A model generated the notes under the pieces. It saw nothing but the letters and a program-made list of their open reading frames with translations, was not told the DNA's origin and ran no database searches. Below are positions 5,154 to 34,827 of a DNA stretch of 36,415 nt, piece after piece; positions within the stretch are counted from its first letter, which is position 1; the number at the start of each line of letters is the position of its first letter. The stretch is from the NCBI GenBank assembly GCA_013151435.1, contig JAADIH010000191.1:1-36415 (forward strand). The letters are read 5' to 3'. Origin of the DNA: Alphaproteobacteria bacterium (lineage in GTDB: Bacteria; Pseudomonadota; Alphaproteobacteria; Caulobacterales; Parvularculaceae). Position numbers and translations under genes: made by a program.

Positions 5154-8100
5154 ATGAACCTCAAACGCCAATTTGCGCTGATCGCCGCCCCGCCGATTTT
5201 ATTTTTATTGTTAAACCCGCTTTACGGCGCGACAATTGGCTGGAATGGTATTCTTTTACCAGTGCTTGCAACGCTCACAATGACGCTGACAAGCATTGTT
5301 CTCTCTTACTATTTTGCGCGTCCACTTTTAGCAAAAATCTCCAACCTGTCAAAACGGGCAAAAGCGATTCGCCAGGCCGATGGTTCGACTTCGGGTGATG
5401 ATGCAAAAAACACGGATATTTTTGACGAAATTTCTGCGGTCTTTAAGAGGGTGACGCTAGAGCGCGAGGAAGTAAAAAATGCTCGCGAAACCCTTTCAGA
5501 AGCCAAAGCAAAACTCGATGCGATTGAACTTTCACAAGCAACGATTGAGTTAGATCTCGATGGAACGATTTTGGGCGCTAACGAAAATTTCCTCAACACG
5601 ATTGGTTATTCCCTCGATGAGATTAAGGGCCAGAATCATTCGATGTTCGTTGATGCGGAATATAAGTCGAGCCCTGATTATAAAGCTTTTTGGGACGGTT
5701 TGCGCCGCGGTGATTTCAATGCGGGCAAATTTAAGCGTATTGGCAAAGGCGGAAAAGAGATTTGGCTTCGGGCAAGCTACAATCCGATTCTCGATGAGAG
5801 CGGAAAGCCATATAAAGTTGTAAAATTTGCGTCAGACATTAGTGACACCGAAGAGGCGGCGCATGAAGCTCTCTTCAAGAGCTCTGCATTTGGCGGTTCA
5901 TCGGTTGCGATGATGATGGTCGATCGTGATTTCATCGTCACCTATGTCAATGAAGCGACCAAGCAGCTTCTGGCGGCGAATACGGATGCGTTCCGTGAGG
6001 TTTGGCCGAGCTTTAACGCTGATAATATCCTTGGCGCCTGCATAGACATGTTCCACAAAAATCCGGCGCATCAGCGCCAACTTTTGTCGGACCCATCGCG
6101 TCTTCCTTATCAGACCGAGATCACGGTTGGAGACCTTAAGTTTTCACTGAATGTTAGCGGTGTCTTCGACGCAGATCGAAACTATATCGGTAATACGTTG
6201 GAGTGGGCGGATGTAACGGTAGACCGTCTCAATTCGGGAATGTTGGATGCACTGTCGCGTTCACAAGCAACGGTTGAGTATAATCTCGACGGGGCGATCG
6301 TCAGCGCCAATGAAAACTTCCTGAAAACGATGGGTTATACGCTAGATGCACTCAAAGGCCAGCCTCATTCGCTACTTGTTGACGCAAAATATAAAGAAAG
6401 CTCAGAGTACAAAGCGTTCTGGGAAGCTTTGCGCCGCGGCGAATATCAGGCCGGAACCTACAAGCGGATTGGCGAGGGCGGAAAAGAAATCTGGATTCAG
6501 GCAAGTTACAACCCGATTCTCGACGCCAGCGGTAAGCCCTTCAAGATTGTTGAATTCTCGTCGGATGTGACCGAAACTGAAAACGCTGCACGCGAAGCAA
6601 CTTTCAAAAGCGCGGCGTTTGAAGGCTCATCGGTTGCGATGATGATGGTCGACCGCGACTTTATGGTCACTTATGTTAATGAGTCCACCACAAAACTTCT
6701 GTCAGAAAATGCAGATGTTTTCAGTGAATTTTGGCCAAACTTTAATGCGGCCCAAATCGTAGGGTCGTGTATTGATATATTCCACAAAAACCCTGCGCAT
6801 CAGCGTCAGTTACTTTCTGATCCCTCCCGCCTGCCATTTCAGACCGACATCGCCATTGGCGATTTCAGGTTCGCACTAAACGTAAGCGGTGTGTTTGACG
6901 CGAATGGCGATTATGTCGGCAATGTTCTTGAGTGGTCTGATGTGACGGCGGATCGGTTGAATGCCGGAATGCTCGCCGCCCTTGATCGTGCGCAAGCGAC
7001 GACTGAATTCTCGCTAGACGGTAAGGTTGTTGATGCGAACGAAAATTTCTTAAACGTTATGGGGTACAGCCTGGATGATATCAAAGGTAAACATCATAGT
7101 ATATTTGTTGATCAAGAGCTTAAAAACAGCCCCGACTATGGCGTTTTTTGGGAAGCGCTGAAACGCGGAGAGTTTCAATCGGGTGAGTATAAACGCACTG
7201 GAAGAAATGGCTCGGATGTCTGGATCCAAGCGTCATATAACCCGATTCTTGATGGCAGCGGCAAACCATTTAAAGTTGTCGAATTTGCATCCGACATCAC
7301 CGATGTTGTCAATCAGCGTCATAAGGATGAAGAAGAACGTCGTGAGACGGCGAAAGCGCAGCAGTTGGTTGTGGACTCGCTGGCCAATGGATTACGCAAG
7401 CTTTCCGATGGCGACCTTACCGACACCATCGAGACGGCATTTACAGCCGAATACGAACAGCTTCGTCATGACTTCAATAACGCGGTGTCGAAATTGAAAG
7501 AGACCATGGGAACGATTGTCACCACAGTGGAGGGCATTCGTCACGGGTCCGGAGAAATCAGCACCGCTGCGGATGATCTGTCAAAACGGACAGAAAACCA
7601 GGCGGCGACGCTGGAACAAACCGCCGCTGCGTTGGATGAGATTACGGCGACGGTGAAACAGACATCGGAAGGCGCGAATGAAGCGAACTCTGTTGCGTCG
7701 GAAGCTCGTAAAGAAGCGCAGACAAGCGGCGAAATTGTCAAAGAGACGGTTGAGGCGATGGGTGAGATTGAAAAATCATCCGTTCAAATCTCGCAAATCA
7801 TTGGCGTTATCGATGATATTGCATTCCAGACCAACCTGTTGGCGCTCAATGCTGGCGTTGAAGCTGCACGCGCAGGCGATGCCGGTCGAGGGTTTGCCGT
7901 TGTCGCACAAGAAGTACGCGCTCTCGCGCAAAGATCCTCCGACGCGGCCAAAGAGATCAAGGGCTTGATCACATCGAGTTCGCAACAGGTTGAAACTGGC
8001 GTTGAGTTGGTCGGTCGCGCAGGCACTGCATTGGCGGGAATTGCCGAACGTGTGGAGAGTGTCAGCACGCTGGTTTCCGAAATTGCCGCCTCCGCGAAAG

Positions 8101-8438
8101 AACAGTCGGTGAGCCTTTCGGAAGTCAACACCGCAGTCAACAAAATGGACCAGGTGACGCAACAAAACGCGTCCATGGTTGAGCAAACCACGGCCGCCAG
8201 TCACTCACTGGCCAATGATTCAGATGAACTCATGAGCCAGGTTGCTCACTTTAAAATTGGCGATCATAAATCAGGCGGTTCAGACGCTGCGCCGTCGCGC
8301 AATAAAAAAGGCGCCAAGCCCAAGCAGTCGGTGGCCGAACAACAAGACCGCGCGGCGTCTTTCGCATCTGCAACTAACGGGTCGGCGGCATTGCATGTAG
8401 AACCAGAGGTTAGCCAGGAAGACTGGCAAGACTTCTAA
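5154..8438 (+). CDS. Methyl-accepting chemotaxis protein with two N-terminal TM segments and five alternating PAS modules (A-B-A-B-A)
   Basis: TM segments near the N-terminus; repeated PAS text (ANENFLNTIGYSLDEIKG / ANENFLKTMGYTLDALKG / ANENFLNVMGYSLDDIKG); MCP hairpin tip IAFQTNLLALNAGVEAARAGDAGRGFAVVAQEVRALAQRS; C-terminal EDWQDF resembling the CheR/CheB-binding pentapeptide tether. Confidence 0.96.
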   Translation: MNLKRQFALIAAPPILFLLLNPLYGATIGWNGILLPVLATLTMTLTSIVLSYYFARPLLAKISNLSKRAKAIRQADGSTSGDDAKNTDIFDEISAVFKRVTLEREEVKNARETLSEAKAKLDAIELSQATIELDLDGTILGANENFLNTIGYSLDEIKGQNHSMFVDAEYKSSPDYKAFWDGLRRGDFNAGKFKRIGKGGKEIWLRASYNPILDESGKPYKVVKFASDISDTEEAAHEALFKSSAFGGSSVAMMMVDRDFIVTYVNEATKQLLAANTDAFREVWPSFNADNILGACIDMFHKNPAHQRQLLSDPSRLPYQTEITVGDLKFSLNVSGVFDADRNYIGNTLEWADVTVDRLNSGMLDALSRSQATVEYNLDGAIVSANENFLKTMGYTLDALKGQPHSLLVDAKYKESSEYKAFWEALRRGEYQAGTYKRIGEGGKEIWIQASYNPILDASGKPFKIVEFSSDVTETENAAREATFKSAAFEGSSVAMMMVDRDFMVTYVNESTTKLLSENADVFSEFWPNFNAAQIVGSCIDIFHKNPAHQRQLLSDPSRLPFQTDIAIGDFRFALNVSGVFDANGDYVGNVLEWSDVTADRLNAGMLAALDRAQATTEFSLDGKVVDANENFLNVMGYSLDDIKGKHHSIFVDQELKNSPDYGVFWEALKRGEFQSGEYKRTGRNGSDVWIQASYNPILDGSGKPFKVVEFASDITDVVNQRHKDEEERRETAKAQQLVVDSLANGLRKLSDGDLTDTIETAFTAEYEQLRHDFNNAVSKLKETMGTIVTTVEGIRHGSGEISTAADDLSKRTENQAATLEQTAAALDEITATVKQTSEGANEANSVASEARKEAQTSGEIVKETVEAMGEIEKSSVQISQIIGVIDDIAFQTNLLALNAGVEAARAGDAGRGFAVVAQEVRALAQRSSDAAKEIKGLITSSSQQVETGVELVGRAGTALAGIAERVESVSTLVSEIAASAKEQSVSLSEVNTAVNKMDQVTQQNASMVEQTTAASHSLANDSDELMSQVAHFKIGDHKSGGSDAAPSRNKKGAKPKQSVAEQQDRAASFASATNGSAALHVEPEVSQEDWQDF
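5532..7315 (+). repeat. Intragenic tandem repeat, 729 bp (243 codon) period, about 2.4 copies
   Basis: Equivalent codons tca/tca/gcg of SQAT/SQAT/AQAT start at 5532, 6261 and 6990, i.e. 729 bp apart each time; surrounding sequence is clearly similar at DNA and protein level. Confidence 0.9.
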
Positions 8439-8447
8439 TTCGACGAC

Positions 8448-8502
8448 GAGGCAAGCGGCGCTCTTTCTCAATGAAGGCGTGCCGCTTGCCTCATTAATTT
8501 TC
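8448..8502 (+). terminator. Probable rho-independent terminator or processing hairpin after the MCP gene
   Basis: Perfect 12-bp inverted repeat GAGGCAAGCGGC (8448-8459) / GCCGCTTGCCTC (8481-8492) followed by ATTAATTTT. Confidence 0.65.
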
Positions 8503-8531
8503 ATGCCTGTCAGAAGCAGCCGGTAGTATAT

Positions 8532-9572
8532 ATGCCCATTCGTGTTCTCGTTGTTGATGATTCGCCGATCATGCGCGGTTTGATTTCACGCGCGCTAGAC
8601 CATGACCCTGACATTGACGTTGTTGGAACCGCCGGCGATCCTTACGAGGCGCGACAGGCGATCAAGTCGCTAAACCCCGATGTCATCACCCTTGATGTTG
8701 AGATGCCGCGCATGAACGGGATAGAATTTCTCGAAAAAATCATGCGCCTGCGACCGACGCCTGTTATCATGGTGTCTACGCTAACCCATAAAGGGGCTAC
8801 CGCGGCGATCCAAGCAATGAGCCTCGGCGCTATTGATTGTCTGGGTAAGCCTGATCGCGGAAATGCCCGCGAGGTCTTTGCGAAACTACCCGGGTTGGTA
8901 AAAGTTGCAGCGAGAGCCAATGTTAGGCCGTTGGGCGAGACGCGTGCGGTTAAGCCCTACCCGGATACGTTTGAACCAAATGAAAAAATCGTCGCCATCG
9001 GCGCCTCAACAGGAGGTGTCGAGGCGTTGACGGATGTCTTGTCAGGGTTTCCGGAAAATTGCCCGCCAACAGTTATCGTTCAGCACATGCCGGCATTGTT
9101 TACCGTCAGTTTTGCCAAACGGCTTGATACTTTGTGTGCGGCTAAGGTTGAAGAGGCGGTGGATGGTGCGCCGCTGGAGATGGGACGCGTCTATCTGGCG
9201 CCTGGTGGCGCTACGCATCTTTCTATTGCTGGAACAGGGCCCTTCACCTGCCGTCTTCGCGCAGATGACTTAGTAAGCGGCCATAGACCATCCGTTGACG
9301 TCCTTTTCAACAGTGTCGCCGAGAAGATTGGCAGACGCGCCGTTGGCGTTATTCTTACCGGTATGGGCGGCGATGGCGCCGCCGGTCTGCTTGCTATTCG
9401 CGAAACGGGTGCGGTGACAATCGGGCAAGATGAAGGCTCTTGCGTCATTTATGGAATGCCGAGGGTGGCGTTTGAAATGAAGGCTGTGCAGCGTCAATAT
9501 CCCTTGTCGCGAATAACTCCTGCGATCATGCGCGCTTGCGATCGTAATGCCAAAGCCGAGGCTGCTGCATGA
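8532..9572 (+). CDS. cheB: Chemotaxis response regulator protein-glutamate methylesterase CheB
   Basis: Receiver domain [13 protein letters not shown]...[14 protein letters not shown]; methylesterase motifs [38 protein letters not shown]. Confidence 0.97.
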
Positions 9573-10150
9573 GCAGGTTTACCAACCTTGCGCGCAGCGC
9601 AGAACGCCCAAAGCCGGGAGACCAGCGCAAATTCAATGTTTTTCAGGGGCAATACAAAGTATCCAACCTGGAGAATGCAGTTCTATCGACACTGTTGGGA
9701 TCTTGCGTCGCGGTGTGCATGTACGATCCCGAGGCCGGTGTCGGCGGCATGAATCATTTTCTGGTGCCCGGCGGTGAAAACCGCGCTAATGAGCGCAGTC
9801 TCAGCCATGGCGCCTACTCAATGGAGCTCTTGATCAACGGGCTATTGAAACGCTGCGCAGAGCGCAAACGGCTGGTTGCTAAACTCTTTGGCGGCGCTTC
9901 TGTAATGTCCGGCCTGTCGGATGTCGGGCAACAAAATGCTGAATTTGCCCGCAGCTTTCTGGCGACGGAAGATATTCTCTGCATTAGCGAAAGTCTTGGC
10001 GGCAAGAGTGCGCGGCGTATAAATTTTTGGCCCTGTACCGGCCGGGTGCAGCAATTATTTATTCCCATTGCGGATGCGCCGCAGGTTGAAGAAGAAGACA
10101 AAAGTGAGCCAGAAGCGCCGCCTGCCGGTAATGATGTTGAACTATTTTGA
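9569..10150 (+). CDS. cheD: Chemoreceptor glutamine deamidase CheD
   Basis: [30 protein letters not shown] with catalytic Cys and His; ATGA overlap with cheB. Confidence 0.95.
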
Positions 10151-22007: not shown

Positions 22008-25000
22008 ATGTTGTCCGCACGCACCTTCCGCCGGATTGCCGTTGGCCTTGCGCCTGCCGCGTTTTTTGCCGCTTCCGCTCATGCGCAATCGACGCCGGAG
22101 CCGTTGCTGGCGCAGGTGCAGGGCGATGCGAACGGGGTTGATCTGGCGACCGGCGCGCTGACCATGTCGGCGAGCGATGTGGCGATCGGCCAACCGGGCG
22201 CCGGCGGGCTCAGCTACACGCGGGTCTATTCCGGCACGGGTTGGCGCGGAAAGATGCTCGGCACGATCTGCACAGAATCTGGCGATCCGAGCAAATATAT
22301 CGTCTCGATGGTCGCATCATCAGAAACGTTCACGCTGACCGGCAGCCTTGGCACGGGAACGTTTGCTTCCGATATCAATTCCGGCGCGAGCCTGACCTAC
22401 ACCTCGGCAAACCAGGAGTTCACCTATACCAGCGGCGACGGGACGGCGGCGGTGTTCGATGCGACGCTGGCCGGGAAGATCGACCCGGCGAACGCCAATG
22501 AGGGTGTTCTGGTTCGCACCACCGCCCCGAACGGCGCGGTTACCGACTACACATATAACGAAGCAACCGTCTCCAGCACGACGCGGGCGCGGCTGCAGTC
22601 GGTGACCAATTCGTTCGGTTACCAGATGCATATGAATTACGCCGATGACAGTCCGGCGAACACCACCGAGCTCAATGGCAATTGGCTGCGCGTCACCAAA
22701 GTCACCGGCTTTAACCGCACAGTTGATTATTGCGCAGCGACGGCAAACACCTGTTCTTATTCCCAAAGCTGGCCGGATGCGAGCTATACCGGGACCAACA
22801 GCCAGATCGCGACCGTCACCGATCCGATTGGGCGGGTGACGACTTACACCTAATGCCAGCGGCAAGCTCACCAAGGTCAAATGGCCTAGCTCGACGGTAG
22901 ATAATCTTACCGTCAGCTATCACGCGGCGGGCGCTTCTGCGGGGTTCGTTTCTACGATCAATCGCGGCTACGCCAGTTGGACCTATTCCTACTCGGATAC
23001 ATCGACCGTGCGCACGACGACGGTCACGTTGCCGGGCGGCGGCTCGAGCGTCACCACGAGCAGGCTCGCCAGCGGTCTTGTCTCATCGACAACAAGCCCG
23101 CTCAATCAGACCACCCGCTATCGCTATTATACGTCCGGCCAGGTGAGGCGAGTGATCGCGCCGGAGGGCAATTACGTTTCCTACAGCTATGACGGGCGCG
23201 GCAACCTCACCACCACGACTGCTGTCTCCAAGTCCGGCTCCGGGCTTGCCAACATCGTCTCTTCGGCGACTTACGCCGCGACCTGCACCAACAACAAGAC
23301 CTGCAACAAGCCGCTGACGACGACGGATGCGCGCGGCAAGGTGACCAATTACGTCTATGACGCAACCCATGGCGGGACTGCCAAAATCACCGCGCCGGAC
23401 CCCGATGGCGGCGGCGCGCTGGTGCGCCCGGAGACGCGCATTACCTATGCGCAAAAGCGCGCGCGTTACAAAACCGCCAGCTCAACCTTCGCCGATGGCC
23501 CGTTGATGTGGGTCCCGACCGAGACCTCGGCCTGCGCGACGCTCACCTCCTGCGCCGGCGGCGCGGACGAGACCAAAACCGTCACCACATGGCCGGGAAC
23601 GTCCTCAGCGCAAAACCTGCAGCCCGTATCGGTCACCGCCAAGGCCGGGAACAATGCGGTGACCACCACCACCAGCTTTGCCTATACCGACTTCGGCTGG
23701 CTCGATAATGTCGATGGCCCGTTGTCGGGCGCCGCTGACCGTTCGTTCTTCTTCTACAATGATGCGGGCGAGCAAACCGGCGCCATCGGCCCGGACCCGG
23801 ACGGCGCCGGGGCGCTGAAGTTCCAGGCTGCGCGCACCAGCTTCAACACTTTCGGCCAACCCATAAAAGTCGAGCAAGGCACAGCGACAGCGCAAACCTC
23901 CGCTGCGCTCGCCGCCATGACCGTCTTACAAAAAGCCGAGACCGAATATGACGCCTATGGCCGGCCGGTGAAATCTCTTGCCTATTCCGGCGCGACGACG
24001 ACGCTGTTGGCGGTCAGCCAAGTGAGTTACGACTCTGCGGGGCGCACCGATTGCGTTGCGCAACGGATGAACCCGTCGGTGTTTGCAACCCTGCCGTCAT
24101 CGGCCTGCACGCTGGGGACCAAAGGCTCATATGGCGACGACCGGGTGGCGCGCAACACCTACAATAATGGCGGTCAGGTTTTAAAAACCATCTCCGCCTA
24201 TGGCACGACGTTAGCGCAGGACACGGTGACGCGCACATACACGACCAACGGCCTCGCCGCGACGCTCACCGATGCGGGCGGTAATAAAACCACTTATGAA
24301 TATGACGGCTATGACCGTCTCACAAAGACGCGGTTCCCATCGAAGACCACGGCGGGGACCTCATCGACCACCGACTATAACCAGTTGACCTTCTCCAACG
24401 TTGCCGCGACGCTGGGGCTCGTGACATCTGTGCGCAACCGGGCGGCTCAGTCGATCACCTTCACCTATGACGATCTCGGGCGCATGACACGCCGGCATGT
24501 GCCGGGTTCGGCCGACGGGACCGCAACGAAAGAAAACCACGATTTCGCCTATGACAGCTTCGGGCGGTTAACAACGGCCACTCATTGGAGTGTGACGCTG
24601 GCCTACACATATGACCAGCTCGGGCGGCTGACCAAGAAGCAGCATAATGCGGCGCTGCCGATTGACTACGCCTATGACGCCGCCAGCCGGGTGACCAAGC
24701 TGACCCATCCGGACGGGTTCGCGGTCGATTACGCCTATGACACGCTCGGCCGCCCGACCTCGGCGACCAATGGTTCGAACACGCTGGCGACGGTGGCCTA
24801 TGACGATTACGGTCGGCGCGCCTCCCTCACCTATGGCAACGGAACCAGCGTTGCCTACACCTTTGACGGCGGCGGCCGGCTCAGCGATCTCGACTGGAAC
24901 CTCAACGGAACCACCAACGACTTCAGTTACGACTTTACCTACACGCCGTCATTCCAGACCGCCACCAAGACCCTCTCCGACACCGCGTTTGACTGGGTTC

Positions 25001-25242
25001 CGGCGGCGTATTCTGTCGACAGCTACACCGCCAACGGCCTCAATCAGTATACCGATGTCGCCGGGGTGACGCCGGTCTATGACGCCAATGGCAACATCAC
25101 CACCGACCATCGCGGCTGGGACTATACCTATGATGCTGAAAACCGGCTGAGGACCATCAAGAACGGGGCGGCGCTGGCTTCCCTGGTCACGGACGCAGAA
25201 AGTTTTTACACATCGCAGCAACTTATCAGCCGACGGCATTAA
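22008..25242 (+). pseudogene. RHS/YD-repeat protein, frameshifted near 22851 and truncated at its 3' end
   Basis: Signal peptide, many YD repeats (YEYDGYDRLTKT, FTYDDLGRMTRR, YTYDQLGRLTKK, YAYDAASRVTKL). Frame 0 ends at GRVTTYT* (22853); frame 1 continues from 22852 as NASGKLTKVKWPSSTVDNLTVSYH into ORF 23008-25242, then ends soon after DAENRLRTIKNGAALASLVTD. Confidence 0.85.
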
Positions 25243-25544: not shown

Positions 25545-27359
25545 TTAAAGGATATCATTGTCGCTCTGCGACATTTGTTGCCGGCGCCACAAGTCACGAT
25601 ATAACCCATTTTGATGAATAAGGGCCTCATGTTTGCCGCGCTCTTCGATACGGCCATTGCAAAGCACCAAGATTTCATCGGCATTAATAATCGTCGACAA
25701 GCGATGCGCGATTACAAGGGTAGTTCGCTCACTAGCAATATCATTGAGGCTGCGCAAAATCTCTTGTTCCGTTGCAGAGTCAAGGGCGCTTGTAGCCTCA
25801 TCAAAAATCAGAATCCGTGGATTTTTCAAAATTACACGGGCGATTGCGACACGTTGCTTTTCACCTCCTGAAAGTTTGAGACCGCGCTCGCCCACTTGCG
25901 TGTCAATACCGTCTGGAAGACGTGCAATAAATTCACCAAGTTGCGCTGCCTTAGCCGCGCGCTCGACGTCTTTCCGGGACGCGCCTATCTTACCATAGGC
26001 GATGTTATAGAACAATGAGTCGTGAAAAAGCACTGTATCCTGAGGAACAACGCCAATTGCATTTCGCAAACTATCTTGCGTGACCGTACAGATGTCATGC
26101 CCGTCAATTAGAATTTTCCCGCCATTAACATCATAAAAACGAAACAATAACCTTGCGATAGTGGATTTTCCCGCACCGCTTGGACCAACGATCGCGACTG
26201 TTTTTCCAGCTGGAATATCGAAAGAAATATCTTCCAACAAAGGCCTGCGCTTGTCGTAATGGAATAACACATTGCGAAAGGAAACACCGCCCCGGCCAAC
26301 TGTTAAAGCGCATGCGCCTGGCGTATCCTCAACTTCAGGACGTTGGGAAAGCAAGCCTAACATGGCTTCCACGTCTGCGAGGGACTGTTTTATTTGAGTA
26401 TAGACAAGACTTAACGCATGAAGTGGCGCATATAATTGCAACAGATAGGCGTTAACAAGGACAAAATCTCCGATCGTCATTGCGCCCGTTACGACACGCC
26501 CGCCAGCTAGAACCATTACTAAAATAGCGCCGGTAGCAGTGATAAGCGACCTGCCGATGTTAAATAACACTTGTACGGTTTGATTGCGAATAGCTGCGCT
26601 TTCATAAGCGCGTTTTGCAGTGTCAAATCTACGCGCCTCAGCCTCTTCGGCTGTAAAATATTTTACAGTTTCATAATTCATCAAGCTGTCAATGGCCTTC
26701 ATGCTCGCGGCCACATCCAGCATATTCATTTCTTTTCGAAACCGAACTTGCCAACGGGTCATTAGCAACGTGAAACCAAGATATGAAGCGATCGTCATGA
26801 TCGTAATAATGGCAAAACTTGGGTGGTATAAACGAAACAGGACCGCCGACACTAATGCTAATTCAACTATCGTTGGGAAAATACTAAACAATACGAGCTC
26901 TAGCAAAAATTCCATGCCAGTAGTGCCGCGTGCAATGATTGTCGCTATGCCGCCTGTCTGTCGGTTAAGATGAAAACGCAACGAGAGAGCGTGAAGCTTT
27001 CGAAAGACGTCCAAGGATGTTATGCGAATAGCTCTTTGGCTAACTGTAACGAAAAGATACTCTCTTAGTTCCCCTGTAAGTTGGTTGAGCGCATTAGCGA
27101 CGCCATAGGCAACAATAAGTGCAATTGGCGCGTAAATAGGAGCAGCGATCAGCGTATCTATAACATGCTTATACAAAAAAGGCGCAACAACACTAATTCC
27201 TTTGCCGACAATAATTAGAATCAGCGCCCCCACAACACGTGCCTTAAGCGCGCTTTCCCTCTTAGGCCAAAGTAATGAGAATAGTCGCAAAACGACTTGC
27301 GCTACCACTCTCTGATCATTTTGTGATTGGGTTGGCTGTTGACCTTTAGCGTTCATCAT
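25545..27359 (-). CDS. ABC transporter, fused permease/ATPase, Atm1/HMT1 (ABCB7-like) type
   Basis: TM domain with TGELREYLFVTVSQRAIR and FHLNRQTGGIATIIARGTTGMEFLL; NBD motifs GPSGAGKSTIARLLFRFYD, LSGGEKQRVAIARVILKNPRILIFDEATSALD. Confidence 0.93.
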   Translation of the reverse strand: MMNAKGQQPTQSQNDQRVVAQVVLRLFSLLWPKRESALKARVVGALILIIVGKGISVVAPFLYKHVIDTLIAAPIYAPIALIVAYGVANALNQLTGELREYLFVTVSQRAIRITSLDVFRKLHALSLRFHLNRQTGGIATIIARGTTGMEFLLELVLFSIFPTIVELALVSAVLFRLYHPSFAIITIMTIASYLGFTLLMTRWQVRFRKEMNMLDVAASMKAIDSLMNYETVKYFTAEEAEARRFDTAKRAYESAAIRNQTVQVLFNIGRSLITATGAILVMVLAGGRVVTGAMTIGDFVLVNAYLLQLYAPLHALSLVYTQIKQSLADVEAMLGLLSQRPEVEDTPGACALTVGRGGVSFRNVLFHYDKRRPLLEDISFDIPAGKTVAIVGPSGAGKSTIARLLFRFYDVNGGKILIDGHDICTVTQDSLRNAIGVVPQDTVLFHDSLFYNIAYGKIGASRKDVERAAKAAQLGEFIARLPDGIDTQVGERGLKLSGGEKQRVAIARVILKNPRILIFDEATSALDSATEQEILRSLNDIASERTTLVIAHRLSTIINADEILVLCNGRIEERGKHEALIHQNGLYRDLWRRQQMSQSDNDIL

Positions 27360-27781: not shown

Positions 27782-27786
27782 AGGAG
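27782..27786 (+). promoter_or_regulatory. Shine-Dalgarno of the small peptide gene
   Basis: AGGAG with a 7-nt spacer to the ATG at 27794. Confidence 0.7.
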
Positions 27787-27793
27787 TTCAAAA

Positions 27794-27982
27794 ATGATTA
27801 AAGATGCTAAGCTTTTTGCTTTTCAGTTATCAGAACAATCTGAAAAGAAAACTGATGACAAGACATGGAAGGCGCGGAAAGGTCTCGCAATAGCAGGCTG
27901 CAGCATTGTGAGTGGGTCATGGCCAGACCCTGTCCTCGCGTATCGCGCATGGGGCGGTAGTGATACCGGGCCCTACTGCTAA
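27794..27982 (+). CDS. 62-aa candidate RiPP precursor peptide
   Basis: MIKDAKLFAFQLSEQSEKKTDDKTWKARKGLAIAGCSIVSGSWPDPVLAYRAWGGSDTGPYC; strong SD; lysine-rich leader with LFAFQLSEQ resembling graspetide leader motifs (FFAxFLE-like); Cys/Gly/Ser/Trp-rich C-terminus; immediately upstream of an ATP-grasp peptide ligase gene. Confidence 0.75.
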   Translation: MIKDAKLFAFQLSEQSEKKTDDKTWKARKGLAIAGCSIVSGSWPDPVLAYRAWGGSDTGPYC

Positions 27983-28074
27983 GACAAAAGAAAATGGCGC
28001 CTTCATCAATCTTGCGCCAATAGAGAAGATTGTCGAAGAGCGCTTTCGGTAAGGGCTGGTCAACTTCATTACTG

Positions 28075-28120
28075 AAGCACCAATAGAATTGACATTTTAG
28101 CCAACTGCTTGGTGCTTTTT
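28075..28120 (+). terminator. Stem-loop plus T-tract between precursor and ATP-grasp gene (candidate attenuator or leaky terminator)
   Basis: Perfect 9-bp inverted repeat AAGCACCAA (28075-28083) / TTGGTGCTT (28109-28117), 25-nt loop, running into TTTTT (28116-28120). Confidence 0.6.
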
Positions 28121-28121
28121 C

Positions 28122-29177
28122 GTGATTTTGGCCGGCCGTTACAGTCCCCTCTACGCCGTGAAAAAAATGAATCCAAAAAAAATAGTTGCTGTCACGACTG
28201 ATTGCGATTTGCATGTCGATGTAGTTCTTAAAAAGATTCAAGAATCAGGAGGGAGCGTTTTCCGGGTAAACCTTAATGAGTTTCCTCAGCGTTATGAGCT
28301 GTCTACTCAACACAGTACTAATGGTTGGAGTGGCCAAATTCGCAATCTCACCACCGATGAGTTCTTGCAGTTAGAAGAGATAGGAGCTTTTTGGATTCGA
28401 AAAAAAGGTGATTTTTCATACAACGCAACGCTCTCAAAACAGGAGCTTGCGTTCGCAAATGATGAAATGGAACATTTGCTTTTCGGCTTGTTCAATTCCT
28501 GTGACTGTTACTGGATGAGTCGTCCGTCTGCTATTCGTAGCTCGATGTGGAAGCTGGAACAATTGCACCGTGCAATGAGATTCGGTTTTGCCACCCCAAA
28601 AACACTAACAACGTCATCTTCTACTGCCGTACGACAATTTAGATCCACCTGTAAGAACGGCATTATTTTTAAAACGCTTTCCAGCGCCTCTTTAGCGTCG
28701 GAGTTAGTGAGTGAAGAGGAAATTGTAGCATACGGCTTAAAAACTACACTCATCACTGATGAAAATGACCACATGCTGGATTCTATCAGCATCGCTCCGG
28801 GATTTTTCCAAGAGTATATTCCAAAATCTATAGAGTTACGCGTTACCGTCGTTGGGCAAACAGTTTATGCTGCAGAAATTCATTCCCAGAGCGATCCGCG
28901 CACGTCGACAGATTATCGTGATTTTAGTGCTGAAATAAAATATGATGTTGCTATTTTGCCAGACAAAATAGAGCGACTATGCATTGAATTTGTTCGCAGC
29001 TATGGCCTTGAGTATGGTGCTCTAGATCTAATCGTCACGCCTGCCGGCGAATATGTTTTTCTTGAAAATAATCCCGTTGGTCAGTTCTATTTTGTGGAAC
29101 AGCTGGTTCCAGCACTTACAATTTCCGATGCGATGGCCAGTCTTTTGATCCAAGAAGCGCATAAGCAAAGTCAATGA
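28122..29177 (+). CDS. MvdD/graspetide-type ATP-grasp peptide ligase (likely start ATG 28167 or GTG 28158)
   Basis: N-terminal KIVAVTTDCDLHVDVVLKKI, AFWIRKKGDF, GLFNSCDCYWMSRPSAIRSSMWKLEQLHRAMRFGFATPKTLTT, FFQEYIPKSIELRVTVVGQTVYAAEIHSQ, YGALDLIVTPAGEYVFLENNPVGQFYFVE; this pattern matches microviridin MvdD/MvdC-like ligases. Confidence 0.87.
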   Translation: MILAGRYSPLYAVKKMNPKKIVAVTTDCDLHVDVVLKKIQESGGSVFRVNLNEFPQRYELSTQHSTNGWSGQIRNLTTDEFLQLEEIGAFWIRKKGDFSYNATLSKQELAFANDEMEHLLFGLFNSCDCYWMSRPSAIRSSMWKLEQLHRAMRFGFATPKTLTTSSSTAVRQFRSTCKNGIIFKTLSSASLASELVSEEEIVAYGLKTTLITDENDHMLDSISIAPGFFQEYIPKSIELRVTVVGQTVYAAEIHSQSDPRTSTDYRDFSAEIKYDVAILPDKIERLCIEFVRSYGLEYGALDLIVTPAGEYVFLENNPVGQFYFVEQLVPALTISDAMASLLIQEAHKQSQ

Positions 29178-30049
29178 AATCACACCTTGCTTCGATCCTT
29201 GACGCCATAGAGCAGGAACGCGGCAGCAAAGCCATCGTGTTTGCTGCATCAAATTTAGATATTGGTTTGCTGCCCACTTTATACGATTTGATTGAAGAGC
29301 TTTCACCAAAGTCATCACTTGATGTGGTTATTCATTGCCACGGGGGAGAAATTACAGCGGCGCGACGCTTAGCGCGCATCCTCACCGATGCAACCCGCCA
29401 CTTGACTTTTATTGTTCCGTTTTACTGCACTTCAGCCGGAACCATTATGACGCTAGCGGCGGACGAAATTATTGCTGGCGCAACAGCCGTTTTCTCACCA
29501 GTCGACCCGCAATTAACTACCGCTCCAGATTCCGCCAACGCTGGAGAAAGCATGATTTCTGCAGAGGATGTTCGTCTTCTCAGGCGAGCATACGCGGATT
29601 GGTTTAACGTTGATCAAAATCAAGCCAATGAGAAAGCTTTGGCAAAGCTATCCGATAACATTTTCCCGACCACTCTCACGTCTTTTTATCGGGCCACGAA
29701 AGAAGTTAAAATGATTTGTTCAGAGTTACTTTCGATTCGCGAAGGGCGCTTTAATGAATCGGAAATAGACCAGATCATTACGAGCCTCTCGTCAGGCTAT
29801 CACTCGCATTTTTATCCGATTTCAGGCGAGGATTTATCCGCACTTTCCTTACCTGTGATTAGGAGTCCGCGGATCGAAAAAGCCGCTTGGAAAGCTTCAA
29901 AATTTATCCGCAGCGTTGTCGGCGGCGGCTTACGCAAAGCGCCGAAGGATGACTGGGTTGACGCAATGATCGCTAGTCGCGAACGGGTCTTCGTGCGTCG
30001 AAATACACAACAGCGTCTTGAAGCGATATGGGAAGAGTTAGATACTTAA
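29174..30049 (+). CDS. SDH-family Clp-fold serine protease
   Basis: VVIHCHGGEITAARRLARIL, VPFYCTSAGTIMTLAADEIIAGATAVFSPVDPQL (Clp/crotonase-fold Ser nucleophile in TSAGT); ATGA overlap with the ATP-grasp gene. Confidence 0.85.
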   Translation: MKSHLASILDAIEQERGSKAIVFAASNLDIGLLPTLYDLIEELSPKSSLDVVIHCHGGEITAARRLARILTDATRHLTFIVPFYCTSAGTIMTLAADEIIAGATAVFSPVDPQLTTAPDSANAGESMISAEDVRLLRRAYADWFNVDQNQANEKALAKLSDNIFPTTLTSFYRATKEVKMICSELLSIREGRFNESEIDQIITSLSSGYHSHFYPISGEDLSALSLPVIRSPRIEKAAWKASKFIRSVVGGGLRKAPKDDWVDAMIASRERVFVRRNTQQRLEAIWEELDT

Positions 30050-30056
30050 GAGCGCT

Positions 30057-30614
30057 ATGTTAAAATTCTATATTGTCGAATTCTGCCGGTTTTACATTCT
30101 TACTGTGTTAAGTTTGGGAGTATACGGAAAGCTTCGTTCATTTACTGATTTCCGCCACGGTGTAGAGGAGATACTCAATCTATCACAAGGCGCTGCTCAA
30201 AGCCGAATTGCAAAAAGCATTTCTGGAACCGTCATTATAACTGAGGCGGTAACAGCGTTATTAACACTTGCTGGTGGGAATTTTTCAACGATTGGAATAG
30301 GTGGGGCCACATTATTAGTCATTTTCTTCACAGTTGTGATCGCAAGAATTATTTTTCAAAAACGCCTGATCCATTGCAACTGTTTTGGAGTTTCAGTCCA
30401 CGCAATAACTTGGCTGGATCTGGTTCGAAACATGATCATTCTTTCTGCGTGCTCTGTTTTTCTTGTTATTACTTATCGCCATCAAGAATACTTAACAATC
30501 CAAACGTCAATGTTGAACAACAGTATTCTGTTTTGCCTAGCTATAATTCTTTCCAATTATACGATGAATCTAAAGGAGTTACAATTTCTTATGCGGCGCC
30601 CTTCAATCGGTTAG
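30057..30614 (+). CDS. MauE/DoxX-like redox-associated membrane protein
   Basis: Four or more TM segments with the MauE-type CNCFG motif (LIHCNCFGVSV) and the N-terminal LSLGVYGKLRSFTDFRHGV. Confidence 0.82.
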   Translation: MLKFYIVEFCRFYILTVLSLGVYGKLRSFTDFRHGVEEILNLSQGAAQSRIAKSISGTVIITEAVTALLTLAGGNFSTIGIGGATLLVIFFTVVIARIIFQKRLIHCNCFGVSVHAITWLDLVRNMIILSACSVFLVITYRHQEYLTIQTSMLNNSILFCLAIILSNYTMNLKELQFLMRRPSIG

Positions 30615-30623
30615 GTTAAAGAT

Positions 30624-31235
30624 ATGGATGTGACGTTCATTGGTTTTGTATTGGCTTTCCTGGCTTTCGCCATCGCGATTAATTCGTTTCTCATCATTCG
30701 CACAGCGAAAATGATTGAAGCGATTGCTCCGGCAATAGGAATGCCTTCGCCCCTTTGTGAAGGTACGCCTCTCCCCGCTTTTTCTGGGAGTATGATTCAG
30801 ACAGGTGAGACTGTTTGTAATGCTTCCCTTGTCGGAAAACCAGGAGTCATTATTTTTATGACCTCGGGATGCGCTGTATGCGAAGAAAAAAAGCCGGAAA
30901 TTTTAAGGGCGCGGCAGGGCGCAAAAGCACTTGGCGTTATATTTCTGGTGGCAGAGATGGATTCACTCCACGCGGCGCAGCAAGATTTAAGCAGAACCTC
31001 CTTTTTAAGTTTCACCATGACGCTAAATAAAAAGTCGTTTTACAGATTAAACCCTACAAAAAGCATGCCTCTATATGTGTTCTTTGACGAAAACGGCATC
31101 GTTAAAGCTTCGAATTTGATCGGCGATGAAAATTGGACTTTATTTATAGAAAAAGTTACCGCCGTGACATTGCCAGGTGATGATTCCAATAGGCCTACAG
31201 AATTTTCCGACACCGTATTTTCTGGAGCCGTATAG
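30624..31235 (+). CDS. MauD/TlpA-like thioredoxin-fold protein, membrane anchored
   Basis: N-terminal TM, GKPGVIIFMTSGCAVCEEKKPEI (CxxC), MPLYVFFDENGIVKASN; directly follows the mauE-like gene. Confidence 0.82.
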   Translation: MDVTFIGFVLAFLAFAIAINSFLIIRTAKMIEAIAPAIGMPSPLCEGTPLPAFSGSMIQTGETVCNASLVGKPGVIIFMTSGCAVCEEKKPEILRARQGAKALGVIFLVAEMDSLHAAQQDLSRTSFLSFTMTLNKKSFYRLNPTKSMPLYVFFDENGIVKASNLIGDENWTLFIEKVTAVTLPGDDSNRPTEFSDTVFSGAV

Positions 31236-31694: not shown

Positions 31695-33983
31695 ATGTCC
31701 ATGAGACGCATATTCTTATTTGCGGCGGCAGTGTTGGTTATTGGTTTTGTCGGCTGGAAGGGTTTTTCCTACGCAGTCGTAACGGGCATGTTGGGTCAGG
31801 AGAGAGATGCTGGCGTCATTTATGGCGACGCCACGCCGGACCCGGTTATTATTGCGCGGCGTGAAGCCGATCAGTCCTTGTCGCCTGATAACACGTCGAA
31901 ACAAGTCCTGTTCGGTGACCTTCATGTCCATTCGTCATACTCCACGGACGCATTTTTATGGGCGCTGCCGCTAAATCACGGGAAAGGCGTTCATCCGGTT
32001 GCGGACGCATGTGATTATGCGCGCTATTGCTCGGCTATTGATTTCTGGTCGATTACCGATCACGCGGAAGCGATCACGCCAGAACGATGGACGCAGACAA
32101 AACAGTCTGTGCGACAGTGCCAGGCAAAATCGACCGATCAGACAAACCCGGATTTGGTTTCAATGATGGGCTTTGAATGGACGCAAGTTGGCGGCGTTCC
32201 TTCAGAGCATTTTGGCCATAAAAATGTAATTTTTCTTGGGCTCGATGACGATGAAATCGCCGCGCGTCCGATTGCCGCCCAAGGGGCGGCGACCCAAGCC
32301 CTGCGCACCAACGCAGCGGGCATACCGCCGATTGTTGCGATGGCGGATTTTAAAAACAGAAACGTCTATTATGACTTCAATACGTTTTTGAAAAACATCC
32401 GCGATGTTCCTGAATGTGATCCCAATCTTCCTTCGAGTCAGCTGTCGCTCGAATGTTATGAGTCGGCAAAGCTGCCCGGCGATCTCATAGAACGGCTGAG
32501 TGATCAGGGGCTTGATCCATTGATCATACCCCACGGTACTTCATGGGGTTTTTATACGCCGCCGGGCACGAGTTGGGATAAACAGCTTGCGCCCAAGCAC
32601 CGGCCTGAAAAATTTCGATTAATCGAAATTTACTCCGGCCACGGCAACTCTGAAGAGTACAGAGATTATCAAAACATCATTGAGATTGAACCGGATGTCT
32701 CTGCCGCATGCCCGCCAAAGCAAGACGGATTTACGCCGCCTTGCGTCCGGGCCGGTGAACTAATTGAACAGCGTTGTCTGAGTGAAGGAAACGGTAGTGA
32801 AATATGCGCCATCAAATCGCAGGCAGCGCGAGACGCCGCTGCGAGCATGGGCGTGCCTTATCATTTGGCGATCGCCAGTGAAACCCCGGAAGACTGGCTT
32901 GACTCAGGTCAGTGTACAGACTGTTATCTGCCGCCGTTTCATCACCGCCCGAAAACCAGCGTGCAATATGGCTTGGCGATATCGAATTTCGACGATGTGG
33001 CCGAAGACGAAAACCCTATTCGGTTCAACTGGGGCTTCATTGCCTCATCCGATAACCACCGGGCGCGCCCTGGCACGGGGTACAAAGAAATCGCTCGCCG
33101 TCTCAACACTGAATCGGGCGGTGTCGTTGATCCAAAATTTCGAAAGATGTTCATCCGCGATGAACCAGCGCCCGATTCCACAGTCTATCGTAAAACACGC
33201 GAAGAGCTGACGGCGCTCACAGGCTTTCAGTTGACGGAGCTTGAGCGCCAATCAAGCTTCTGGCAAACCGGCGGACTTGCTGCGGTGCATAGCGAAGGCC
33301 GTTCGCGCGAAGAAATCTGGGATGCGCTGCAACGGCGTGAAACATATGCAACCTCAGGGCCGCGCATGTTGTTATGGTTTGACCGCATTGGCGAGGATGG
33401 CAGTGAAGCGCCAATGGGCGCAACCGTCGATGCATCAACCTCCGGCACATTTAAGGTAACCGCTGTAGGCTCCTACAAACAAAAACCGGGTTGTCCGGAC
33501 TTTGCAGTGGATGCTCTCGGCGGCGATCGCATTGAGAGCCTTTGCGCCGGCGAATGCTACAACCCGAGCGATCAGCGTAATTTGATCGAGCGTATTGAGA
33601 TCATCCGTATCCGGCCGCAAACGTCTCCAGAAGAACAAATTACCAACCTGATCGATGATCCGTTTCTTGTCCACCAGTGCACGCCTGATGAGACCGGTTG
33701 CTCGTTTGAGTTTGGCGACCCCGATTTCGCCGCTGGTGCGCGCGATGTGCTTTATTATGCGCGCGCCATACAAGAAGCGCGTCCGACCATAAACGCTGAA
33801 CCCATCCAGTGCGAACGCGATGAAGAGGGCAGCTGCATAAAGGCGTCCCTTTGTTATGGGGATTGGCGCTCTGGCGATGCAGAGTGCACAAGCATGAAGG
33901 ATGTGCGCGCCTGGTCTTCACCGATATATTTGAATTATTCAAAACAGGCGGAGGCTTCTGTCGAAGCGTCCAATGAGCAATAG
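31695..33983 (+). CDS. DUF3604 domain-containing protein (probable exported or membrane-anchored PHP-like phosphoesterase family)
   Basis: FGDLHVHSSYSTDAFLWALPLNHGKGVHPVADACDYARYCSAIDFWSITDHAEAITPERW, FNWGFIASSDNHRARPGTGYKE, REEIWDALQRRETYATSGPRMLLWF. Confidence 0.92.
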   Translation: MSMRRIFLFAAAVLVIGFVGWKGFSYAVVTGMLGQERDAGVIYGDATPDPVIIARREADQSLSPDNTSKQVLFGDLHVHSSYSTDAFLWALPLNHGKGVHPVADACDYARYCSAIDFWSITDHAEAITPERWTQTKQSVRQCQAKSTDQTNPDLVSMMGFEWTQVGGVPSEHFGHKNVIFLGLDDDEIAARPIAAQGAATQALRTNAAGIPPIVAMADFKNRNVYYDFNTFLKNIRDVPECDPNLPSSQLSLECYESAKLPGDLIERLSDQGLDPLIIPHGTSWGFYTPPGTSWDKQLAPKHRPEKFRLIEIYSGHGNSEEYRDYQNIIEIEPDVSAACPPKQDGFTPPCVRAGELIEQRCLSEGNGSEICAIKSQAARDAAASMGVPYHLAIASETPEDWLDSGQCTDCYLPPFHHRPKTSVQYGLAISNFDDVAEDENPIRFNWGFIASSDNHRARPGTGYKEIARRLNTESGGVVDPKFRKMFIRDEPAPDSTVYRKTREELTALTGFQLTELERQSSFWQTGGLAAVHSEGRSREEIWDALQRRETYATSGPRMLLWFDRIGEDGSEAPMGATVDASTSGTFKVTAVGSYKQKPGCPDFAVDALGGDRIESLCAGECYNPSDQRNLIERIEIIRIRPQTSPEEQITNLIDDPFLVHQCTPDETGCSFEFGDPDFAAGARDVLYYARAIQEARPTINAEPIQCERDEEGSCIKASLCYGDWRSGDAECTSMKDVRAWSSPIYLNYSKQAEASVEASNEQ

Positions 33984-34827
33984 TCGAGCTACGAACCGAA
34001 CGACGCTTGCTTACGCGATTGCGGCTTTTGTAGCGCTGGGCGCTGCGCTATATTCAGCACTTGGGGTGTCAATTGGCAGGCGCGACACCGCTGCTGTAGC
34101 GTATGTAAATGGCGCACCTATTCTTGATGCGGAGTATGCGCGCGCGCGCGACGCAATGCAGTCTGGATTGGTGAGGGCGCGCACAGCGGAAGATAACGCG
34201 CGCGCCATGCAAATTTTGATTGACGAGGAGTTGATTGTTCAAGAAGCCTTGCGACTTGAGCTTGGGCGCGATGATCGTTTGGTTCGTAAAAACCTGATCC
34301 AGGCGCTTATCCGTTCCGTTACGTCTTTAAATCCAGCCGTTGATCCAGAAGAAGACGCGCTCAGGACTTTTTACGAGGCGGAAACAGTCCTCTTCTCTTC
34401 TCCCCGGCTGGTGACGATTGATGTTGTGCGCGCAGACAGCGAAAGCCAGTCGCAAGGATTTGTGGGTGCTTTGCAAGGGGGCGCTTCCTTTGAAGAGGCT
34501 CGTGCGACCTTCGATCTGGTGCGCATCCCGGTTGCGTCCCGGGCGCCGCTTGGGAAGGTGAGTGACTACCTCGGCGGTTCGGCGCGCGATGCTGTCGCCA
34601 AGATGGCGCAGGGGGAAATTACGGGGCCTATAGCGACCAGCAGCGGCGAGCTTTTTCTTTGGCTTCGCAAAGATGAAGGCGGCCCGCTTTCCTTTGAACA
34701 AGCCAGAAATAGCGTCGAGATCGAATGGCTGCGCCGCCGCGACGAACAGGCGCTGGAAAAATATGTCGCGCGATTGCGCCGTAATGCGCGGATCAAAGTA
34801 TTGATTGACCCCGAAACGGAACAATGA
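33973..34827 (+). CDS. Peptidyl-prolyl cis-trans isomerase, parvulin/PpiC type, membrane anchored
   Basis: N-terminal TM, YVNGAPILDAEYARARDAM, LIDEELIVQEALRLEL, rotamase-like C-terminus GKVSDYLGGSARDAVAKMAQGEITGPIATSSGELFLWL. Confidence 0.85.
   Translation: MSNSRATNRTTLAYAIAAFVALGAALYSALGVSIGRRDTAAVAYVNGAPILDAEYARARDAMQSGLVRARTAEDNARAMQILIDEELIVQEALRLELGRDDRLVRKNLIQALIRSVTSLNPAVDPEEDALRTFYEAETVLFSSPRLVTIDVVRADSESQSQGFVGALQGGASFEEARATFDLVRIPVASRAPLGKVSDYLGGSARDAVAKMAQGEITGPIATSSGELFLWLRKDEGGPLSFEQARNSVEIEWLRRRDEQALEKYVARLRRNARIKVLIDPETEQ

What the first reader, a model, noticed from the sequence alone, without database searches (positions are those of the whole stretch)
27794..27982. Unusual precursor-like peptide with C-terminal core CSIVSGSWPDPVLAYRAWGGSDTGPYC
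Seen: a charged Lys-rich N-terminal half including LFAFQLSEQ, then a sharp switch to a hydrophobic, Gly/Ser/Trp-rich half with Cys36 and a terminal Cys62, Asp45 and Asp57. Established: graspetide leaders carry an FFAxFLE-like recognition helix, and cores usually have repeated Thr/Ser/Lys donors with Asp/Glu acceptors. Inference: the leader fits, but the core lacks the usual repeats and ends in Cys, so ring topology or bond type may differ (side-chain ester, C-terminal carboxylate linkage, disulfide C36-C62, or thioester).
Basis: partly seen in the sequence, partly recalled or inferred. Interest (0 to 1): 0.8.

Follow-up and report, generated by a model that had tools for sequence, protein, structure and literature searches.

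The report
Graspetide precursor with paired cysteines
The small gene is real and encodes the raw material of a modified peptide that a neighbouring enzyme probably ties with one side-chain ring and that dedicated partner proteins then probably clasp with a disulfide bond, a combination not described in the papers on this peptide class that could be read here.

Summary
The ORF at 27794-27982 is exactly as described and is a real gene. It heads a cluster encoding an MvdD-type ATP-grasp ligase, a ClpP-fold SDH protease, MauE and a membrane-anchored thioredoxin-like MauD, with a divergent ABC exporter. I recovered 92 distinct precursors (37 non-redundant cores). Their core is C-[ST]-x(n)-D-x-G-x-x-C. 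C36, S/T37, D57 and C62 are present in 92 of 92; G59 in 91.

In 17 cores position 37 is the only Ser/Thr/Lys. In one core D57 is the only acidic residue. MauE and MauD both accompany 36 of 39 untruncated clusters. Separate actinobacterial and Chloroflexota MauE/MauD clusters also have Cys-rich precursors.

Best reading: a graspetide with one S37-D57 omega-ester nested inside a C36-C62 disulfide made by MauE/MauD after export. The bonds are inferred, not shown. The precursor family is absent from Pfam and NCBIfam. I call it a new variant of a known kind. Identity with a previously numbered graspetide group could not be excluded, because two key papers were not available.

The parts
27782..27786 (+). 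Ribosome-binding site AGGAG of the precursor gene
   Evidence: Sequence upstream of the ATG; spacing 7 nt.
27794..27898 (+). Leader part of the precursor, residues 1-35, with FAFxL motif (residues 8-12), W25, R28 and G35
   Evidence: FAFx[LV] in 92 of 92 precursors, W in 91, R in 85. The leader/core border after G35 is inferred.
27899..27982 (+). Core of the precursor, residues 36-62 plus stop: C36, S37, D57, G59, C62 are the conserved positions
   Evidence: C, S/T, D and C in 92 of 92, G in 91 of 92.
28074..28118 (+). Hairpin followed by a U-run between precursor and ligase genes, terminator-like or attenuator-like
   Evidence: MFE -17 kcal/mol, z -3.78; its loop is too long for the simple terminator scan.
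28158..29177 (+). ATP-grasp ligase, graspetide-synthetase type (start at GTG 28158 or ATG 28167)
   Evidence: PF21068 MvdD pre-ATP-grasp domain 48.1 bits against cut-off 27; TIGR04187 222 bits, below its cut-off of 350; profile hits to 5ig9 2.4e-57 and CdnC 7mgv 1.1e-54.
29174..30049 (+). SDH-type ClpP-fold serine protease, candidate leader peptidase
   Evidence: PF01972 73.2 bits against 31.3; S87, D111 and H212 invariant in 10 homologues; model with SppA and ClpP as best structural matches.
30057..30614 (+). MauE, membrane protein with conserved CxCFG motif
   Evidence: PF07291 62.2 bits against 27; alignment; about 4 TM segments by hydropathy.
30624..31235 (+). MauD-like thioredoxin-fold protein, one N-terminal membrane anchor and CxxC (C83, C86)
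   Evidence: PF08534 Redoxin 26.7 bits against 26.6 and weak TIGR02661 MauD match below cut-off; CxxC kept in all aligned homologues; TM 6-24.
25545..27359 (-). Divergent ABC exporter without a peptidase domain, likely exporter of the product
   Evidence: PF00664 and PF00005 over cut-off; homologue present in 33 of 39 untruncated clusters (counted).

Best explanation
The ORF is the precursor of a graspetide-type RiPP. The ATP-grasp ligase binds the FAFxL leader, phosphorylates the D57 side chain and joins it to the S37 hydroxyl, giving one omega-ester macrolactone. The SDH protease removes the leader, probably after G35, and the ABC exporter secretes the core. Outside the cytoplasmic membrane, MauE and the MauD-like thioredoxin oxidise C36 and C62 to a disulfide. 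The product would be a ring within a ring: the ester nested in the disulfide, with a variable loop between. Shown here: the family, the invariant residues and the gene association. Inferred: each bond, the cleavage site, the order of steps, and the activity (perhaps protease inhibition, as for known graspetides).
For: Ligase of graspetide type next to the precursor in a 100/100-supported clade of nine loci that all share the gene set or a truncated form of it. In 92 precursors S/T37, D57 and both Cys are invariant; 17 cores have S/T37 as the only Ser/Thr/Lys and one has D57 as the only acid. MauE and MauD both in 36 of 39 untruncated clusters, SDH protease in 38. Independent support: Ktedonosporobacter L020 has SDH/MauE/MauD and a 5-Cys core, actinobacterial L028 and L050 have MauE/MauD and 3-Cys precursors, whereas L029 and L039 (one Cys) and Deinococcus L094 (no Cys) have no MauE in the cluster. 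MauE is proposed in the literature to act in disulfide formation (PMC7794033). Ligase chemistry and the donor-before-acceptor order fit published graspetides.
Against: No product has been observed. Three clusters with this precursor lack MauE/MauD nearby (L015, L146, L153), one MauE-less actinobacterial cluster has 3-4 Cys (L055), and three Hellea cores have a third Cys. Most other graspetides carry several rings; here only one donor/acceptor pair is universal. The ligase scores below the cut-offs of the named NCBIfam subfamilies. Assignment of the SDH protease to leader removal rests on genomic association only.
Confidence: 0.66

Rival explanations
1. Graspetide in which the ligase makes a Cys thioester (C36 or C62 thiol to D57), with MauE/MauD controlling thiol redox state rather than forming a C36-C62 disulfide.
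For: Cys and Asp are equally invariant, and some graspetide synthetases can form non-native thioesters (PMC13097080).
Against: It leaves the 92-of-92 Ser/Thr at 37 unexplained, and no natural thioester graspetide is described in the papers read. MauE/MauD-type genes recur with multi-Cys precursors in other lineages, which suits disulfides.
Confidence: 0.07
2. Graspetide ring as proposed, but the two Cys have another fate: metal binding, a heterodisulfide, or oxidation by general cell machinery, with MauE/MauD serving some other step.
For: Three clusters lack MauE/MauD nearby, and MauE genes exist elsewhere in several of these genomes.
Against: 36 of 39 clusters carry both genes, the two Cys bracket the core at fixed ends, and 89 of 92 cores have exactly two.
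Confidence: 0.17
3. The ATP-grasp enzyme does something other than a side-chain ester: for example it ligates the C-terminal carboxylate or adds an amino acid to the C-terminus.
For: No product is known, and the ligase falls below the named subfamily cut-offs. A side-to-end linkage has been suggested for one graspetide (PMC10787088).
Against: Its closest solved relatives are graspetide-type ligases; an invariant S/T-D pair is the expected substrate pattern, and three members have Ala after the last Cys.
Confidence: 0.07
4. A lipoprotein or other secreted Cys peptide: [AV]-G-C at 34-36 looks like a lipobox.
For: The residues before C36 resemble [LVI][ASTVI][GAS]C in many members.
Against: No hydrophobic segment: the uncharged run before the Cys is at most 7 residues in 92 precursors and no TM segment is predicted. 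The gene set is that of a RiPP cluster.
Confidence: 0.01
5. Chance ORF with no product.
For: Short ORF without a family-library match.
Against: Ninety-two family members with invariant positions and the same gene context.
Confidence: 0.01

Closest known systems
[quoted passage not shown]
   Same: Same ligase superfamily and fold, leader-core precursor with an aromatic leader motif, conserved Ser/Thr donor placed before an Asp acceptor.
   Different: One universal donor/acceptor pair instead of several, no core repeats, two invariant flanking Cys, linked MauE/MauD and SDH protease. Disulfide is not among the secondary modifications listed for the class in PMC13097080.
Group 9 graspetides (numbering of Lee et al. 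2020 as used in PMC13097080)
   Same: Over half of group 9 examples have a serine proteinase nearby.
   Different: PMC8939145 says group 9 motifs share a leader cluster with groups 8 and 11, which it links to an actinobacterial ligase branch; this family is mainly proteobacterial with a different FAF leader. The defining papers were not available, so identity is not fully excluded.
MauE/MauD of methylamine dehydrogenase maturation
   Same: MauE family member and a MauD-like thioredoxin-fold partner.
   Different: They sit with a RiPP precursor and an ATP-grasp ligase, not with mau structural genes; the MauD equivalog cut-off is not reached.
decRiPPter MauE(+MauD) candidate RiPP clusters in Streptomyces (PMC7794033)
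   Same: MauE, in one case MauD, next to a Cys-rich predicted precursor, proposed to act on the precursor.
   Different: Those precursors have at least 8 Cys; the passage read does not place an ATP-grasp ligase in those clusters.
Stryphnine knottins of the sponge Stryphnus fortis (PMC13418204)
   Same: A disulfide-rich peptide that also carries a Ser-Glu side-chain ester, a chemical precedent for the combination.
   Different: Eukaryotic origin, no ATP-grasp enzyme found, unrelated sequence.

Membership tests
Graspetide | Cluster encodes an ATP-grasp ligase of the graspetide-synthetase family | tested here: met
   PF21068 over cut-off; best solved relatives 5ig9 and CdnC; named NCBIfam equivalog and subfamily cut-offs not reached.
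Graspetide | Small precursor with a conserved leader recognition motif | tested here: met
   FAFx[LV] in 92 of 92. Binding to the ligase was not tested.
Graspetide | Conserved Ser/Thr/Lys donor and Asp/Glu acceptor in the core | tested here: met
   S/T37 and D57 in 92 of 92.
Graspetide | Side-chain omega-ester or omega-amide formed by the ligase | not testable with these tools
   Needs co-expression and mass spectrometry.
MvdD or MvdC equivalog | Score above the curated equivalog cut-off | tested here: not met
   TIGR04184 212.9 against 475; TIGR04185 151.3 against 425.
MauE family (PF07291) | Pfam gathering score and membrane topology | tested here: met
   62.2 bits against 27; about 4 TM segments and CxCFG.
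MauD | NCBIfam TIGR02661 equivalog cut-off | tested here: not met
   21.2 bits against 188.6; it is a Redoxin-domain protein with CxxC, so MauD-like only.
SDH-type ClpP-fold protease (PF01972) | Pfam score, ClpP/SppA-like fold, conserved Ser, Asp, His | tested here: met
   73.2 bits against 31.3; S87, D111, H212 invariant; Foldseek SppA/ClpP at E about 1e-4 with modest TM-scores. Catalytic roles inferred.
Bacterial lipoprotein | Signal peptide with a hydrophobic segment before the lipobox Cys | tested here: not met
   No TM segment; uncharged run of at most 7 residues before the Cys.
Group 9 graspetides | Group-defining core motif | not tested
   Defining papers not held; indirect text argues against.

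The most novel reading that the evidence does not exclude
The ATP-grasp ring is a natural Cys thioester, or is chemically coupled to the disulfide step, with ligase and MauE/MauD acting on the same C36-S37...D57...C62 clasp, so that the bond type and not only the topology is new to graspetides.
Probability: 0.07. Interest if true: 0.85.

Novelty: new variant of a known kind. Interest (0 to 1): 0.63.

Why it matters
If right, this is a graspetide family with a dedicated disulfide pathway, adding a secondary modification not in the list given for the class in 2026 (PMC13097080). The design is simple to test: one donor, one acceptor, two cysteines. A cluster-encoded SDH protease is a candidate leader peptidase, an enzyme still unknown for many graspetides. 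Natural clusters with up to 10 different precursors for one ligase (L162) point to a ligase that tolerates varied loops, which would be useful for making doubly constrained peptides.

Tried and rejected
A scan of the genome collection with the single ligase found nothing; an alignment of three ligases was needed. The phylum-wide draw found only the window, and the plasmid searches gave only distant ligases and no precursor. A pattern scan of the more distant ligase loci of the same order (L004-L007, L010-L013) found no precursor of this family. Lipoprotein: rejected, no signal segment. C-terminal carboxylate linkage: disfavoured, Ala follows the Cys in three members. Thioether by a radical SAM enzyme, as suggested for other Cys-bearing graspetide precursors (PMC8939145): set aside, since the window genes tested around the precursor are assigned and none is a radical SAM protein or lanthipeptide synthetase. 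The simple terminator scan found no site although a strong hairpin with a U-run is there. The SDH structure model supports the ClpP/SppA clan only, since TM-scores are moderate.

Full report
WHAT WAS CHECKED. The ORF is present exactly as stated, 62 aa, with a good ribosome-binding site at 27782-27786. Neither it nor any of 14 homologues matches a Pfam or NCBIfam family. Directly downstream are a ligase of the MvdD pre-ATP-grasp family (28158-29177), an SDH-type ClpP-fold protease (29174-30049, overlapping the ligase stop codon), MauE (30057-30614) and a MauD-like redoxin with CxxC (30624-31235). A divergent ABC exporter lies at 25545-27359. The ligase's closest solved relatives by profile are 5ig9 (2.4e-57) and CdnC 7mgv (1.1e-54). 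A hairpin followed by a U-run (z -3.78) separates the precursor and ligase genes. It may let the precursor be transcribed in excess; that is inference.

FINDING THE FAMILY. Within the host's family only one other genome, of the same genus, carries the ligase. One more comes from the order, G350/Hellea. Both have the same kind of cluster and clear precursors; no ABC exporter gene was found near the Parvularcula cluster. A profile of three ligases then found relatives in Lysobacteraceae, Janthinobacterium, Phenylobacterium and Chloroflexota. A precursor profile (A3) found the family in 8 of 347 genomes drawn from the Luteimonas family, 24 of 295 from the Janthinobacterium family and 1 of 299 from the Phenylobacterium family. 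A ligase tree of 74 rows puts the window and eight other loci in one group with 100/100 support, next to two Chloroflexota and one Deinococcus ligase. The distribution is patchy, as expected of a mobile or often-lost biosynthetic cluster.

WHAT IS CONSERVED. From the fetched loci I took 92 distinct precursors, 37 cores below about 60% identity. In all 92: the FAFx[LV] leader motif, G35, C36, Ser or Thr at 37 (57 T, 35 S), Asp at the position of D57, and the last Cys. G59 is in 91. The residue before the last Cys is aromatic in 85. The loop between is free in sequence, with core length 19-33. In 17 cores the residue at 37 is the only Ser, Thr or Lys; in one core the D57 equivalent is the only Asp or Glu. 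So the one donor and one acceptor that all members can use are S/T37 and D57. S42, D45, S56 and T58 are not conserved. Three members end in CA, so the Cys carboxylate is not the fixed end.

WHY A DISULFIDE. Exactly two Cys occur in 89 of 92 cores; three Hellea cores have three. Counting, of 39 clusters not cut by contig ends, 36 have both MauE and the MauD-like gene, 38 the SDH protease and 33 the ABC exporter. The MauE alignment keeps a CxCFG motif and the MauD alignment keeps CxxC. Hydropathy gives MauE about 4 TM segments and MauD one N-terminal anchor, which fits redox work outside the cytoplasm. Related clusters act as natural comparisons. Ktedonosporobacter L020 has SDH, MauE, MauD and a FAF-leader precursor with 5 Cys in its core. 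Deinococcus L094 has the FAF leader, no Cys and no MauE. In a separate actinobacterial ligase clade, L028 and L050 have MauE/MauD and 3-Cys precursors, L029 and L039 have neither MauE nor a second Cys, and L055 is an exception with 3-4 Cys and no MauE nearby. Some of the genomes without MauE in the cluster carry MauE elsewhere, so absence from the cluster is not absence from the cell. MauE has been proposed to help form disulfides in methylamine dehydrogenase, and MauE/MauD have been seen near Cys-rich candidate RiPPs in Streptomyces (PMC7794033).

HOW IT PROBABLY WORKS. Leader binding, ester formation between S37 and D57, leader removal by the SDH protease, export, and oxidation of C36 and C62. 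Graspetide ligases phosphorylate an acidic side chain that a nucleophile then attacks (PMC13097080), and the donor usually precedes the acceptor (PMC13418204); both fit. The SDH model has SppA and ClpP among its best structural hits, and S87, D111 and H212 are invariant. It is the best candidate for the leader peptidase because the exporter shows no peptidase domain, but this is inference. Function is unknown; protease inhibition was the activity of the graspetides characterised by 2022 (PMC8939145).

COMPARISON AND NOVELTY. It meets the testable defining features of graspetides. It differs in having a single conserved donor/acceptor pair, two invariant flanking Cys and linked MauE/MauD. A 2026 paper lists the known secondary modifications of graspetides and a disulfide is not among them; its main text does not contain 'disulfide', 'MauE' or 'thioredoxin'. 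It does mention a serine proteinase in group 9. A 2022 survey places group 9 motifs in a leader cluster tied to an actinobacterial branch, which argues against identity, but the two papers that define the groups were not held and supplementary tables could not be read. That 2022 survey also noted conserved Cys in other new precursors and suggested thioethers. The family may therefore already sit unnamed in a large data set. I rate it a new variant of a known kind.

LIMITS. No product has been seen. The genome draws were samples. Precursors were taken by profile and regular expression, so divergent members could be missed. The core border was set at a G-C step, so that G35 and C36 are conserved partly by construction, and the tally was restricted to sequences with the FAF motif and ending in C(A). 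None with the motif was dropped for its ending; one degenerate hit without the FAF motif and without the last Cys (L145:7785) was left out. The cluster counts were made by eye from its listing, and clusters from closely related strains are not independent.

Noticed in passing
L162 (G1370) 7444-9662, minus strand: Ten tandem, diversified precursors of this family before one ligase; two of the printed cores and one more end in CA instead of C.
   Followed up: partly
L145 7785-7982: A degenerate precursor copy without the FAF motif and ending in R instead of Cys, next to two intact copies; looks like a decaying paralogue.
   Followed up: no
L020 8351-8617: Ktedonosporobacter (Chloroflexota) FAF-leader precursor with 5 Cys in its core in an SDH/MauE/MauD cluster: a related but distinct Cys-rich graspetide family.
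   Followed up: partly
L028 8695-8976 and L050 8703-8990: Actinobacterial graspetide-type precursors with three C-terminal Cys, followed by ATP-grasp, MauE, a CxxC protein and an ABC transporter; related L029 and L039 have a single conserved Cys near the C-terminus whose role is unexplained.
   Followed up: partly
L094 7681-7896: Deinococcus wulumuqiensis plasmid pDrdI: FAF-leader, Cys-free precursor beside an MvdC/MvdD-type ligase.
   Followed up: no
window 22008-25242: Large YD-repeat (RHS-like) open frames, apparently in two adjacent frames (22008-22853 and 23008-25242); may be broken or frameshifted.
   Followed up: no
window 31695-34827: A DUF3604 protein and a PpiC-type peptidyl-prolyl isomerase follow the cluster; a PpiC-type isomerase is a partner protein in another graspetide (rosaritide, PMC13097080), but linkage of this one to the family was not tested.
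   Followed up: no
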